A DNA stretch of 64,000 nucleotides from Marinomonas profundi (GTDB lineage Bacteria > Pseudomonadota > Gammaproteobacteria > Pseudomonadales > Marinomonadaceae), in contig NZ_CP073013.1 of the NCBI RefSeq assembly GCF_020694005.1, positions 434,001 through 498,000 on the forward strand. Reading direction: 5' to 3'. The notes below the pieces were generated by a model. It searched no databases and was not told where the DNA came from. It saw only the letters and a program-made list of their open reading frames with translations. The translations under genes and the position numbers were made by a program. Of the stretch, positions 52,509-58,900 are shown piece after piece. Position 1 is the first letter of the stretch; the number at the start of each line of letters is the position of its first letter.

Positions 52509-52707
52509 ACAGTAATCAAATAAGGCATATAAACGCTGAGTAGTGATGTTAAGCCGTTCATCTAGGGAACGTGCGATTAAGTCAGATTATTAGCACTAAG
52601 TCGCAGCTGGCCTGATTCACTCTTTAATTCACTAAAAATCTCGGTTTTTAGTGTGTCTATTCCTTAGTTGGAGGCTTAAAAGCTCCAACTGCCGTCATCA
52701 AGACGGA

Positions 52708-53153
52708 TTAACCCCGTGCAGACCTTATCATCTGATCCACTCGCAATATGTTTCCCAGTGCAAACAGCACCGCGAGCTTATTATCATTTTTTGATAAACC
52801 TTTATAGACCACTTTGCGGAAGCCAAACTGGCACTTCAGTATCCGAAACGGATGCTCTACTTTTGCTCTGATACTGGCCTTTATGTACCCAGTCTTAATG
52901 GGGAGTTTGTTAATACGGGGATGCTTCTTCCATTCCCGAACCTTGCTTGGCATCTCCGCAATCAACCAGTCCAACGTCTTATTATTGGTTTCCTCACGTT
53001 TTTCTACGCCACGGTAGCCTGAGTCAGCAGAGACAAACGTCTCATCGCCATGTATGAGCTCAGTGATTTGGTTTAGGTCATGTTCATTGGCAGAAGTGGT
53101 GGTGAAACTATGCACCAAGCCACGTTTAGCATCGACTCCAATATGTGCTTTTA
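52708..53153 (-). CDS. IS5-family transposase, 3' exon
   Basis: Encodes the C-terminal half, beginning [16 protein letters not shown] and carrying the second catalytic aspartate in [10 protein letters not shown] and the glutamate in [11 protein letters not shown]. Joined to the 5' exon without the intron, 526 + 446 = 972 bases give 323 codons plus stop, reading FGIKAHIGVD across the junction, the expected IS5 sequence. So splicing would give a complete transposase. All three DDE residues are present. Confidence 0.85.
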
Positions 53154-53194
53154 GTCGGGTAAGGACAGTGTGTTACCACACCATCCTCCCCTAA

Positions 53195-53228
53195 GAACCG
53201 TACTTGAGAGTCACCCCTCATACGGCTC
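53195..53228 (-). ncRNA. Group II intron domain V, followed by domain VI
   Basis: A 34-base hairpin on the minus strand reads GAGCCGTATGAGGGG then TGACTCTCAAGTACGGTTC, the catalytic domain V consensus with an AGC-type triad in GAGCCG. Domain VI (about 53,156-53,190) follows; the A at 53,160, seven bases from the 3' splice site, is the likely bulged branch point. Confidence 0.88.
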
Positions 53229-53260
53229 AAGCCTCTCAACAGCCTTGATATGACCGAGCT

Positions 53261-54743
53261 TCACAATGGGGAAATCGATCGATGGCGGCGCTCCAAATAA
53301 GCGTTCCATGTCGGATTGTAGGGATTCACTGCACTACGTATTTTAATGTGCCTTACGATCAGAACGGTCGATGCTGAAAACAGCCGCAACCGTTGGCTTA
53401 TGCCATTAATCCGATCATCAGACGCAAACACCCAGTGTCTTGCCCCTTCAACATGGAAGTATTTTTTCTTTACCCATTTCGCACCTTTCATGGCGTGCCT
53501 ACGCACAGCCCATCGCCACAGAATTCGCCAAATTTGATGGTCAATCCATGTAAAACGAGCCTTAGACACAATATGGCGGTGATACATCGCCCAACCTCGG
53601 ATTACCGGATTGATATTCAGAATCAGGTTCGCCTGTTGCCGACTTGTTTCCATTCACTATTTTCCGGACCTTATCTAAAAGCGCCTTCACGCTTTTACGG
53701 GCAGGGGTAATCAGTAGCTTGCCCGAATACTTACGTATATTTTGGCCCAGAAAATCGAAACCTTGTGCGATATGCGTGATCCTAGTCTTTTCGTCTGAAA
53801 GCTCCAAGCCCCGTGCCTTTAAGAATACCTCAATTGCCGGGCGAACTTGGTGCTGCAAGACCTCTTTCGAAGCCCCTGTCACGATGAAGTCATCAGCATA
53901 TCTCACGACGTGGATTTTAAACGGGCGTCGTGGTGTATCTTTTGGAGACACGCTTATATTAACTGCCTGCTCTAGCCCATCCAACGTCAAATTCGCCAGT
54001 ACCGGGGAGATGATTCCGCCTTGCGGCGTACCGGCCTCGGTAGCGAATAAGGCTCCTTTCTCTACATACCCTGCTTCAAGCCATTTACGCAGCACGACTT
54101 TATCCATGGTGATGTTTCTGAGCAGCCAATCGTGACTGATGTTGTCGAAACAGCCGCGAATGTCGCCCTCCAGCACCCACGTAGCGGATGTTCGCTTTGC
54201 GAGTGCATTGAAACAATGTGCGATGGCGTCTGCCGTTGAACGCTCGGGCCTAAAACCATAGGAGTTCGGGTCTGCTTGGGTCTCTGCAACAGGTTCCAGC
54301 GCTAATTTCCATAAGGATTGCATCGCTCTGTCTCGCATTGTCGGTATCCCAAGAGGACGCTTCTTTCCATTGCTCTTGGGTATGTAGATACGTCTTAGCG
54401 GTTGCGGTTGATAGCCGCGATGCTTTAACGTGAGTGCTCCCTTTGATTTGGCGGCCGGAGTCGACCATATCTTGCCGTCGATCCCCGGTGTTCTTTTACC
54501 TCGATTTTCCGTCACCCGTTTTACAGCAAGCATTTTGCTGTAAAAGGAGCGGGTTAGTAGGCGCTGCAAGGCTTTCACTTTGCCCCATCTACCTTCCTGT
54601 GTTGCTTTAGCGATACGCACTTGGAGTCGCCTCACGTCTTTCTCGATATGACACCAGTCTGCCCAGAGCCATATCAATTCTGCGTGCGAAGGTGCACCCA
54701 CACCTGAGACCGGCGTCTTCGCGCTGATTGCCGATGCTGTCAT
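53261..54743 (-). pseudogene. ltrA: Group II intron reverse transcriptase/maturase (frameshifted)
   Basis: The N-terminal frame (from MTASAISAKTPVSG) contains the reverse-transcriptase domain with IPKSNGKKRPLGIPTMRDRA, GDIRGCFDNISHDWL, GTPQGGIISPVLANL and the active-site YADD in RYADDFIV. At about 53,640, after VNGNKSAT, the frame diverges; the maturase domain (NLILNINPVIRGWAMYHRHI) continues in another frame to NPYNPTWNAYLERR at the end. Homologues read SATQ at this point, so a two-base CA deletion in ACACAG explains the break. No HNH endonuclease is seen. Confidence 0.85.
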
Positions 54744-55351
54744 CTGCTTTCCTCCGTTAAACAATTTTTCAAGTTATCTCGCTATGAAAGACCTCGTGGA
54801 AGTCTGCTCGCTTTCGCGCCGAGTGATGTTTCAACCCGTATTCTCTCGATTACAGAGAGGCATTCGCTTTTTCCACATTCCTTTATCCGCAGTACCAACA
54901 ATGTTCCTCACGGTTCATCTGCCAACTATGGCAGTACTACGGACTTACCCTGTTCCGCATGTATTTCAGAGCGGAGCGGACCTCCCCATTTCGCCGGTGG
55001 CGCATCATTCACGATGGGTTATTGGTCAGAACCCATACCTGGCCACACACCTTTTGGTTCAAGCCTATCAGCATCTTTGGCTTGTCTGGTTTAACGACGT
55101 TTATAAGAGATTCACATCTGTTGGCCGTAGCCGCTCATTCCTAGCACCGCTCCGCCTTAATGCTGGCAGATTCAGTCTTCTCTCACGGTTCGACTGACCG
55201 ATAAAAATCGGTGGTTACATTGTCCCCGAAGCTTCGCACGGTGCTGTTACCAGCTCCGCACGTCCGAGTAGGAAACGGTTGGTGAAACAACCGGTTTCGT
55301 CAGGTAGACATACCCTGCGAAACAGAAATACTTGCAACTTTCAGGTCGCAC

Positions 55352-55877
55352 TGCCAAAGAACCATTGTTTTCCCTTTTGCGTTTGGTGCATTTCGGGATC
55401 GCGTGCATTAGATTTATTTTTGGTGGAACTTGCTGCCTCAATAATCGTCGCATCAACGATTGTCCCTTCTTTAAAGTAGGTGCCAGAATCAGACAGCCAT
55501 TTGTTTACTTCTTTGAAGAGTTTACGACCCAGCTTATGCTTCTCAAGCAGGTGACGGAAATTCATGATGGTCGTGTGGTCTGGGATCGCACCTTCTAATG
55601 ATAGGCCAGCAAACAGCCGCATAGAGGTGATCTCGTAAAGGGCATCTTCCATCGCTGGATCACTCATGTTGTACCAGTTCTGCATAAAGTGAATGCGTAG
55701 CATGGTAGCGAGAGGGTATGGACGCCGACCATTGCCAGCTTTTGGGTAAAACGGCTCAATCTGAGCTTCGAGCTGTAGCCATGGAATCAGCTCATTCATC
55801 CGACCAAGGAAGAGCTCTTTGCGAGTCTTGCGGCGTTTGCTGGTAAATTCGGTATCGGCGAAGGAAAGCTGATTCAT
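55352..55877 (-). CDS. IS5-family transposase, 5' exon
   Basis: Encodes the first 175 residues, starting [18 protein letters not shown] and containing [38 protein letters not shown] and the first catalytic aspartate in [11 protein letters not shown]. It is closely similar to the N-terminal half of E. coli IS5 transposase (InsH). Coding stops being IS5-like after WFFG, exactly where a GTGCG intron start appears on this strand. The unspliced frame would run three codons into the intron to a stop. Confidence 0.88.
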
Positions 55878-55947
55878 GTCATTCGGTCTTGAGGTAATGG
55901 TCAGATCGGCATTGTCTCATATTGGGGACTTAATCGCAGTTTCCCGA

Positions 55948-58900
55948 ATGGATAAACAAACTCCCAACTTCCAAGAAGAATTCAGCGCAAAAATACCCGC
56001 ACTGACATTGTTCACCAACTTGGGTTACACCTTCATTCCACCAAGTGAATGCGAAGCGCTACGCGGCAACACACTAGCGAGTGAAAAGAAAAGCACTCAT
56101 CAGGTTGTTTTACTCCCTGTAATGCGTGATTTTTTAGCCAAGCAAACATTCTCGTTTGCAGGTAAACAACATACATTATCAGAGGCCGCAATTGATAAGG
56201 TAATGCATGAGCTGAACCCTGCCATGAACCTTGGGCTAAAAGCGGCTAACGAGAAAATCTACAACGCTTTAATGTATGGCATCAGTGTGACCGAGTTTAT
56301 TGATGGCAAAAAAGCTTCACCCACCATTCAATTAATCGACTGGTCGAATATTAACAATAACCACTTTCACTTTACCGAAGAATTAGTTGTGCAAAATGCC
56401 GAAGGCACAGGCACTCGCAGACCAGACGTGGTGTGCTTTATAAACGGCCTACCGTTGGTAGTGATTGAGGCTAAACGCCCTGACTCGAAGCATGAAAGTA
56501 AATCGACCAGCTATGAAGCGGTGTCTCAGCAAATTCGTAATCAGAAGCAAGACGAAATCCCTCATCTATTTGCTTACAGCCAGTTACTGTTAGCAGTTAA
56601 TGGTCATGAAGGGCTTTACGCCACTTGCGGCACACCTGAAAAGTTTTGGGCCAAGTGGAAAGAAGAACTCATTCCAGAAGCGGAATTTGTGCGTTTAAAG
56701 AACCACAAATTAAGCGATGAACAAATCAACAATCTGTTTGACCATCGCCCTGCTTCCGATAAAACAGAATATAAGTCTCTGATCTCTGCAGGTGATTTAA
56801 CCGTTACCGACCAAGACCGATTAATTATCAGTTTGTTGCGCCCAGACAGACTGTTAGAAATGACGCGTTTATTTACCTTGTTTGATAAAAAAGCAGGCAA
56901 GATCGTAGCGCGTTACCAGCAAGTGTTTGGTATTAAAGCTTTAATAGAACGCATCACCACATTTGATGAGCAAGGTGCGCGTGAAGGCGGTGTTATTTGG
57001 CACACTACCGGCAGCGGTAAGTCATTCACCATGGTGTTTTTATCCAAAGCCCTTATTTGGCTAGAAGAACTCACTCAATGCCGCGTGATTATTGTTACCG
57101 ACCGAGTGGATTTAGAAGATCAGCTTAGCCGTACGTTTGCTTCAGGCGGTGTATTGACAGACCGCGACAAGAAAGACGCGATGCCAACCTCTGGTAAACG
57201 CCTAGCGGAGCAAATTGGTAAGGGTAACGAACGCGTTATCTTTTCCATTATTAACAAGTTTGGTTCTGCCATTAAGCAGCCTGAGTGCTTCAACGACAGC
57301 CCAAATATTTTGGTATTGGTTGATGAAGGCCACCGCAGCCAAAACGGTGAAAACAATATTCGTATGCAACAAACGCTGCCGAAAGCCGCGTTCATCGCCT
57401 TTACGGGTACGCCGCTGTTAAAAGACGATAAGACCGAGAATAAGTTCGGCAAGATCATTCACTCTTACACCATGCAGCAAGCGGTTGAAGATAAAACCGT
57501 GACGCCGTTATTGTACGAAGAGCGCATTCCTGACCTGAACGTAAACGACAAAGCCATTGATGCGTGGTTTGAGCGTATTACGTCAAAGCTTACAGAAGAG
57601 CAAAAGACCGATCTTAAAAAGAAGTTTTCACAAAAAGGCCAAATCTATCAAACCGAAGGGCGTATTGAATTAATTGCCCATGATATTTCTGATCACTTTC
57701 AAAATTTTAAGAACCAAGGTTTAAAAGGCCAGCTAGCGTGTGACTCTAAAGCCTCTGCCATTCGCTACAAACAAGCCTTAGATAAAATTGGCAAAGTGAC
57801 CTCTGTGGTAGCGATGTCTGCCCCCGATACTCGCGAAGGCCATGATGTAGTTGACCAAGAAAGCAAAGACATTGTGCAGAATTGGTGGAAAGGTAATGTT
57901 GCCAACACCTATGGCGGCGACGATAAGGCTTACACAAAGGCGATTATAGAAGACTTTGGCCGTGATGATGGCCCAGACATTATGATTGTGGTTGATAAGC
58001 TTCTTACGGGGTTTGATGAACCCAAGAACACGGTTCTCTACATCGACAAGCCGCTGCGCGAGCACAACCTGATTCAAGCGATTGCACGAGTAAACCGATT
58101 GCACAAACAAAAGCAGTTTGGGTATTTAATTGATTACCGTGGCATTTTAAAAGAACTCGATACCACCATTGAAAAATACCAAGACTTGGCTGAACGCACC
58201 CAAGGCGGCTTTGATATTGACGACCTTAAAGGTTTGTATAACCGCATGGATACGGAATACAAAAAGCTGCCAGGATTGCACAGTGATTTATGGGGAATTT
58301 TTGAAGGGGTTAAAAACAAACAAGATGGGCCTGCGCTAAGACAAGCGTTAGCGCCTAAAGTGAAAGACGTTGCGGGTGACTTGGTTGATACCAATCTTAA
58401 AAAGCGTGATGACTTTTATTCAGCTTTAACGGCATTTTCCAACTGCATGAAGGTTGCTTTACAGTCGGCCAACTACTTTGAAGATAAATCGTTTGATAAC
58501 AAACGTGATGTCTATAAACGTGACTTAAAAGCGTTCGTAGAACTGCGCCAGCAAGTGCGTGAAGATGCTAACGAAACCATTGATTACGATGACTACGCGG
58601 AAGACATTCGCAGTCTGCTTGATAAGCACATTGCAGGTGTTGAAGTTAAAGAAGCTGAAGGCGCTTACCTAGTTGGTAATCTTGGTAAACACGTAAAGCC
58701 TGAAACCCTAAGCGATGATGAAGCACGTAACCAGACCGATAAGATCACTGGCCGCGTGACTAAAATGATTGAACAAGACCTTGCCGATGACCCTTATGCG
58801 CAGGAGTATTTTTCTAAGCTGCTGAAAAAAGCGATTGAAGACGCTAAAGCCATGTTTGATGCCCCCGTTAAACAATACATTTTGTTTGCAGATTTTGAGC

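What the first reader, a model, noticed from the sequence alone, without database searches (positions are those of the whole stretch)
52565..55945. A group II intron sits inside an IS5 transposase gene and its removal restores an exact 323-codon frame
The exon lengths (526 and 446 bases) sum to 972, divisible by three. The junction reads FGIKAHIGVD, matching IS5 transposases, and the intron ends show GTGCG and CCCGAC with a 34-base domain V. A mobile element with an in-frame, same-strand intron could keep transposing if the intron still splices, letting the two elements spread together.
Basis: partly seen in the sequence, partly recalled or inferred. Interest (0 to 1): 0.75.

Follow-up and report, generated by a model that had tools for sequence, protein, structure and literature searches.

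The report
Intron joins two different IS5 halves
A mobile intron sits inside a jumping gene of a marine bacterium, and the jumping gene turns out to be a hybrid whose front and back halves come from two different relatives, joined where the intron lies; the intron's own protein gene is damaged, so this copy is probably no longer active.

Summary
Confirmed: window 53154-55351 (-) is a full-length group II intron (Rfam RF02012, RF00029) inside an IS5-family transposase gene. Removing it gives one 323-codon frame, the length of native intronless copies. The genus is taken to be Marinomonas from the nearest named hit.

Against intronless copies from the genus, the 5' exon is type Y at 114 of 114 diagnostic sites and the 3' exon type X at 135 of 137; the switch lies at the intron. 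The intron itself is mosaic (first ~400 nt near-identical to the M. vulgaris intron, the rest not). In Stutzerimonas kunmingensis, two identical inverted introns mark an apparent inversion that exchanged IS5 exons. Recombination between intron copies is the best explanation.

Not supported for this copy: "the two elements spread together". It is the genome's only full-length copy, its maturase is frameshifted, and its exon-recognition loops fit another IS lineage (12/12) better than its own 5' exon (9/12). Relatives have intact reading frames, and identical introns occur in diverged IS5 elements of one genome, so the intron seems to home by itself.

Introns in IS transposases are known (RmInt1, E.c.I4); exon exchange between IS transposases is the new part.

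The parts
52566..55944 (-). IS5-family element interrupted by the intron; flanking 4-mers CTAG (52562-52565) and, in transposase sense, TTCG (55945-55948): no target-site duplication
55927..55944 (-). left terminal inverted repeat, type Y (GGAAACTGCGATTAAGTC)
55352..55877 (-). transposase 5' exon (codons 1-175 and first base of 176), type Y; over 55352-55945 593 of 594 and 592 of 593 aligned bases identical to the two intronless Y copies of the genome
53154..55351 (-). group II intron, 2198 nt, 5' GTGCG ... CCCGAC 3'; nt 1-400 differ from the M. vulgaris intron at 1 position, the rest at 118
55144..55294 (-). intron match to Rfam RF02012 group-II-D1D4-7
55087..55092 (-). EBS2 (AAACCA), inferred from covariation with exon positions -13 to -8
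55022..55027 (-). EBS1 loop (GACCAA), inferred from covariation with exon positions -6 to -1
53562..54764 (-). intron-encoded protein: intact RT domains, then out of frame (400 aa ORF)
53261..53653 (-). remainder of the maturase domain in another frame (GIIM, PF08388); no HNH family found here or in 6 of 6 relatives tested
53154..53230 (-). intron domains V and VI (RF00029); 34-nt domain V at 53195-53228
52708..53153 (-). transposase 3' exon (446 nt with stop), type X; 77% to the Y copies, 97-98% to native X copies of G037, G023, G003
52566..52583 (+). right terminal inverted repeat, type X (GGAACGTGCGATTAAGTC)

Best explanation
A site-specific group II intron whose homing site is a conserved spot in IS5-family transposase genes (...FG^xKAHIG.D) sits in this IS. 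Shown from sequence: intron identity, in-frame position, a chimeric host IS with the switch at the intron, a mosaic intron, a broken maturase. Inferred: the intron once occupied two diverged IS5 lineages (Y and X), and homologous recombination between the two intron copies joined the Y 5' half (with the M. vulgaris-like intron start) to the X 3' half, perhaps deleting or moving the DNA between them. The spliced message would encode a hybrid Y/X transposase. With a frameshifted maturase, no second copy, and two unpaired bases next to the 5' splice site, this copy probably splices poorly or not at all and is a decaying remnant; intact relatives elsewhere probably home by reverse splicing without an HNH endonuclease.
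For: Intron. Frame. Mosaic IS: 5' exon 114/114 diagnostic sites Y-like, 3' exon 135/137 X-like and 2 neither (3 Y and 5 X references), switch between base 0 and +8; intronless Y copies in G000, G006, G038 and X copies in G037, G023, G003. Mosaic intron: 1 difference from the M. vulgaris intron in nt 1-400 and 118 after; 0 of 5000 random placements gave so clean a 400-nt window, and the Neptuniibacter intron differs at 47 there, so it is not plain constraint; the 3' 980 nt instead match G002 contig C35. Parallel: S. kunmingensis 7850S has two identical inverted introns (867.7 and 884.8 kb); strain 28M-8 joins directly, without intron, the 5' half of one to the 3' half of the other (C64 base 942|943); the other parental pairing is in P. 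indoloxydans L062. Homing site: 16 of 20 copies examined. EBS covariation. Broken maturase. Single full copy.
Against: No Y-intron-Y or X-intron-X parent and no reciprocal X5'-intron-Y3' product was seen in the 48 genus genomes, though those searches scored only 6 or 12 candidates per genome and the exon lists were cut. The missing target-site duplication is weak evidence: only 2 of 10 intronless copies with both ends seen have a perfect one. The intron's internal switch (about nt 204-417) could be older than the exon swap: the visible 5' ends of the G002 and G013 introns (66-127 nt) are also identical to it, so the shared start may be common in the genus. EBS1/EBS2 were assigned after seeing the exons. 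Intact D5/D6 and 4/6 EBS1 pairing do not exclude some splicing; nothing here measures it.
Confidence: 0.77

Rival explanations
1. One reading: the intron still splices here and the intron-bearing IS transposes as a unit, so both spread together.
For: In-frame same-strand position; D5/D6 intact; a 99.7% identical X 3' half plus intron end at a different flank in G013 suggests that an intron-bearing IS moved at some time.
Against: One full copy only; maturase frameshift; EBS1/IBS1 4/6; no target-site duplication (weak); one identical intron in three diverged IS5 copies and one non-IS site of 7850S argues for spread of the intron alone.
Confidence: 0.12
2. The Y/X chimera arose by an ordinary IS-by-IS crossover that happened to fall at this spot, and the intron homed into the finished chimera later.
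For: Y and X are about 80% identical in the 5' half and 77% in the 3' half, so exon-level recombination is possible.
Against: The crossover would have to fall within about 8 bp of the intron site in an element of about 1.2 kb; no intronless Y5'/X3' copy appears among the matches listed (lists cut); the Stutzerimonas case puts a rearrangement endpoint at the same site.
Confidence: 0.06
3. The halves were joined at the RNA level (trans-splicing, or reverse splicing of an intron-3' exon intermediate onto another 5' exon) and copied back to DNA by the intron RT.
For: It would put the joint exactly at the intron border; Ll.LtrB makes RNA chimeras (PMC6248898, abstract and outline read).
Against: In 7850S flanking genomic DNA moved with the exons, which points to DNA recombination there; the route needs a whole IS copy made through cDNA.
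Confidence: 0.04
4. Assembly artefact: two intron-bearing IS copies were collapsed at the 2.2-kb intron.
For: The complete Y-intron-X joint was seen in one assembly only.
Against: The assembly is one 3.65-Mb contig with one full intron copy; besides it only truncated copy B was found; the complete 7850S chromosome shows the same kind of event.
Confidence: 0.03

Closest known systems
RmInt1 in ISRm2011-2 (Sinorhizobium meliloti, class D, IS630 family)
   Same: Group II intron with an endonuclease-less maturase, homed to an IS transposase gene, splicing needed for transposase; poor splicing said to limit the IS (PMC4238363: abstract and section 11; PMC5894124: section 5 and passages)
   Different: Another intron class by Rfam match (RF02012) and nearest solved protein (6me0), another IS family (IS5); here the host IS is a Y/X chimera
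E.c.I4 in IS3-like transposases of Escherichia/Shigella (Leclercq and Cordaux 2012, PMC3522654, passages read)
   Same: One intron homing to specific positions in several related IS transposases; the authors propose that intron/IS tandems may be prone to rearrangement
   Different: IS3 rather than IS5; the passages I saw do not mention exon exchange
Ll.LtrB exon shuffling giving chimeric relaxases (LaRoche-Johnston et al. 2021, MBE 38:1075; title only, seen in a reference list; that the intron is Ll.LtrB is recalled)
   Same: By its title, exons exchanged between intron-bearing genes, at the RNA and DNA level
   Different: Relaxase rather than transposase; the paper is not held, so details were not compared

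Membership tests
Group II intron | Domains V and VI of the catalytic core | tested here: met
   RF00029 59.1 bits, cut-off 40
Group II intron | Domain I scaffold of a recognised class | tested here: met
   RF02012 116.8 bits, cut-off 34, model 1-151
Group II intron | 5' GUGYG and 3' AY ends at a precise exon junction (consensus recalled) | tested here: met
   GTGCG...GAC; intronless Y and X copies align across the junction
Group II intron | EBS-IBS pairing with the 5' exon | tested here: inconclusive
   EBS1/EBS2 inferred from covariation; 12/12 with the M. vulgaris exon, 9/12 with its own
Group II intron | Intact RT-maturase | tested here: not met
   Frameshifted between RT and GIIM here; one open frame in 15 of 15 relatives, RT+GIIM in 6 of 6 tested. 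Bears on activity, not on descent
Group II intron | Splices in vivo | not testable with these tools
   Needs RT-PCR
IS5 family | IS5-type DDE transposase | tested here: met
   NF033581 195.0 bits (cut-off 140) for the 5' half; DDE_Tnp_1 56.5 bits (cut-off 23) for the 3' half; spliced frame 323 aa
IS5 family | Terminal inverted repeats | tested here: met
   GGAAACTGCGATTAAGTC / GGAACGTGCGATTAAGTC
IS5 family | Short (4-bp) target-site duplication | tested here: not met
   TTCG against CTAG; perfect in only 2 of 10 intronless copies (CTTG, CTAA), so a weak test
RmInt1 (class D) family | RmInt1-like intron in an IS630-family host | tested here: not met
   Host is IS5 family; a direct comparison with RmInt1 was not run

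The most novel reading that the evidence does not exclude
Introns specialised on one conserved codon of IS5-family transposases act as portable recombination sites that exchange the N- and C-terminal halves, and the matching end repeats, between diverged IS lineages in several genera, so producing hybrid transposases and inversions repeatedly rather than once.
Probability: 0.37. Interest if true: 0.72.

Novelty: new variant of a known kind. Interest (0 to 1): 0.5.

Why it matters
Exon shuffling through introns is discussed mostly for eukaryotes; the bacterial case I know of is the model intron Ll.LtrB. Here are natural cases in which a bacterial intron marks the joint between halves of different genes and, in one, the endpoint of an apparent inversion, with parental forms still present in sister genomes. 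That makes the frequency of intron-mediated exchange measurable from genome collections, and the hybrid transposases testable for activity. It also changes the view of this locus: less a partnership of two mobile elements than a decaying hybrid.

Tried and rejected
Chance frame: rejected, native Y and X genes are 323 aa. Intron present in the other IS copies of the genome: rejected; the two Y copies lack it and copy B keeps only the last ~316 nt. An HNH domain lost only in this copy: rejected, none found in 6 of 6 relatives tested. EBS1 by free scan of domain I gave many chance matches; aligning homologous loops resolved it. Attempt to show that the chimera is multicopy in G013 (12 Y left ends, 2 X right ends): the contigs stop in repeats, and pairing ends by duplication gave one compatible pair by eye (C16 with C33, CTAA), so left open. 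Flank search for abiE and hsdR: in none of 8 abiE-side loci did the window's exact hsdR-start string follow within the held flank; one of the four printed (L291) was read on the wrong side and was redone. Compatible with a rearrangement, not proof. Literature: Marinomonas with group II intron listed 8 papers, none of which by title and abstract start is about this; searches listed no paper that I recognised as exon exchange between IS transposases.

Full report
What is there. The window lies in a 3.65-Mb single-contig genome (G000); the nearest named relative of the intron protein is from Marinomonas vulgaris A79 (95%), so the genus is taken to be Marinomonas. On the minus strand an IS5-family element (52566-55944) carries a 2198-nt group II intron (53154-55351). 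Rfam finds RF02012 (116.8 bits) and RF00029, domains V/VI (59.1 bits), both above the gathering score. Splicing gives 972 nt, 323 codons, no internal stop; without it there are 178 codons before the first stop. Five of five native intronless relatives examined, two of type Y and three of type X, also encode 323 aa.

The host IS is a chimera. The genome has two intronless copies (C1:1825342-1826387 and C1:903240-904284) whose 5' half matches the window copy at 593 of 594 and 592 of 593 positions but whose 3' half is only 77% identical. The genus search (48 genomes) supplies further native Y elements (G006, G038) and native X elements (G037, G023, G003), whose 3' half is 97-98% and 5' half 80-81% identical to the window copy. 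With three Y and five X references, all 114 diagnostic sites of the 5' exon are Y, and 135 of 137 in the 3' exon are X, two being neither; the switch is between the last base of the 5' exon and +8 of the 3' exon. The intron lies there. The end repeats are likewise Y on one side and X on the other.

The intron is a mosaic too. Against the M. vulgaris intron (L053) it differs at 1 position in nt 1-400 and at 118 after; 0 of 5000 random placements of the differences gave so clean a 400-nt window. The Neptuniibacter and Marinobacter introns differ at 47 and 46 positions there, so constraint alone does not explain it. Its last 980 nt match G002 contig C35 (6 differing positions counted, one site counted twice) better than G002 C22 (66), while the M. 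vulgaris intron does the reverse (61 and 3). This is what a crossover inside the intron would leave, but the shared start may be older: the visible 5' ends of G002 and G013 introns (66-127 nt) are identical to it as well.

A parallel case with its parents. S. kunmingensis 7850S carries the same intron, without a difference, in three diverged IS5 elements (L058, L059, L060) and at one non-IS site (L061). In two of them, L058 at 867.7 kb (-) and L059 at 884.8 kb (+), the IS halves combine as b-beta' and a-alpha'. Strain 28M-8 has b-alpha' without intron and P. indoloxydans has a-beta' with intron: all four combinations exist. Contig C64 of 28M-8 joins at 942|943, with no intron, DNA that in 7850S lies at 886976-887917 (99.8%) and 867749-869740 (92.6% over 1997 nt, the first 700 nt without a mismatch), including flanking DNA. 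One inversion by crossing over between the inverted introns accounts for this. The b half is 197 nt long and the L058 3' half matches for 331 nt, so identity was judged on those lengths. The introns of L059 and L062 differ almost only after nt 1474 (30 of 31 differences), but L060 and L063, with identical exons, show the same pattern (29 of 30), so that switch is a property of two intron variants, not of the exon swap. For the window copy the process is inferred: no parent or reciprocal product was seen, within capped searches. The missing duplication (TTCG/CTAG) is weak evidence, since only 2 of 10 intronless copies have a perfect one. An hsdR start codon 3 nt from the IS end, and abiE flanks that are not followed by this hsdR start in 8 of 8 related loci examined, fit a rearrangement but do not prove it.

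The intron family. I examined 20 intron copies: the window's, 15 of the 79 loci whose intron aligned from first to last base, and 4 of 5 fetched plasmid stretches (40 of 2104 matching records were listed; the Rhizobium one, L270, was left out). In 16 of 20 both flanks are IS5 transposase in the same codon phase (L054 has only 15 nt of 3' flank); one has IS5 only on the 3' side (L068) and three lie elsewhere (L061, L067, L269). Two loops of domain I vary with the 5' exon: EBS1/EBS2 pair 12/12 in M. vulgaris and Neptuniibacter, 10/12 in the Marinobacter copy, 9-11/12 in the Pseudomonas and Stutzerimonas copies, 8/12 in Azotobacter, 6/12 in Burkholderia L068 (the four plasmid copies were not scored). 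The window intron has the M. vulgaris loops and pairs 9/12 with its own Y exon, the two bases next to the splice site unpaired, and 9-10/12 with X exons. In G013 two contigs begin inside an intron whose visible ends are identical to this one; their flanks read to me as one PQQ glucose dehydrogenase-like gene (no family search), 9/12 against the window's loops, which suggests that 9/12 can suffice for insertion.

Is this copy alive? The protein is nearest to PDB 6me0 among solved structures. In 15 of 15 relatives it is one open frame of 503 codons or more; six of these tested have RT and maturase domains and no HNH. In the window copy a 2-nt gap relative to relatives puts the maturase domain out of frame. 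No other full copy was found in the genome; copy B at C1:547.5 kb keeps the last 316 nt, beside an ISL3 transposase gene, and is shared with G002 and G030. Two other group II introns are of a different class (RF01999); that they cannot help in trans is my inference. Poor or no splicing is the likelier state; nothing here measures it.

Comparison with what is known. Introns in IS transposases are described: RmInt1 in ISRm2011-2 (PMC4238363, abstract and section 11; PMC5894124, section 5 and passages) and E.c.I4 in IS3-like transposases, where the authors also suggest that intron/IS tandems may promote rearrangement (PMC3522654, passages). DNA-level exon shuffling is reported for relaxases by a 2021 title (not read). 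In the listings I recognised no report of exchange of transposase halves between IS lineages at an intron. Hence: new variant of a known kind, interest moderate.

Noticed in passing
L271/L272 (G048 C1:867.7 kb and 884.8 kb) with L273 (G050 C64:942-943): Apparent inversion of about 17 kb in Stutzerimonas kunmingensis 7850S with both ends at identical group II introns, exchanging IS5 exons relative to strain 28M-8.
   Followed up: yes
L015:3526-4433 (G000 C1:547525-548432): Truncated copy: last 316 nt of the intron plus an X-type IS 3' half beside an ISL3 transposase gene; the same truncation in G002 (L235) and G030 (L239).
   Followed up: partly
L016 and L017 (G000 C1:898.5-902.5 kb and 520-524 kb): Two copies of a different group II intron class (RF01999) in the same genome.
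   Followed up: no
L232:1-95 and L233:1-95 (G013 contigs C5 and C19): An intron with identical visible ends appears inserted antisense in a glucose dehydrogenase-like gene (my reading), next to a sequence that keeps part of the IS recognition motif.
   Followed up: partly
window:55948-59250: hsdR-like gene (HSDR_N) begins 3 nt from the IS end; I recognised no hsdM or hsdS by eye among ORFs of 140 aa or more at 40-64 kb, and an AbiEii gene lies on the other side.
   Followed up: partly
L060 against L063: Same IS exons (100%) in two S. kunmingensis strains but introns that differ almost only after nt 1474: the intron variant was replaced or homed independently.
   Followed up: partly
L068 and L067 (Burkholderia aenigmatica, Pseudomonas boanensis): Introns with IS5 sequence on only one side (L068), or only about 19 nt of it on the 5' side (L067); possible further products of exchange through the intron.
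   Followed up: no
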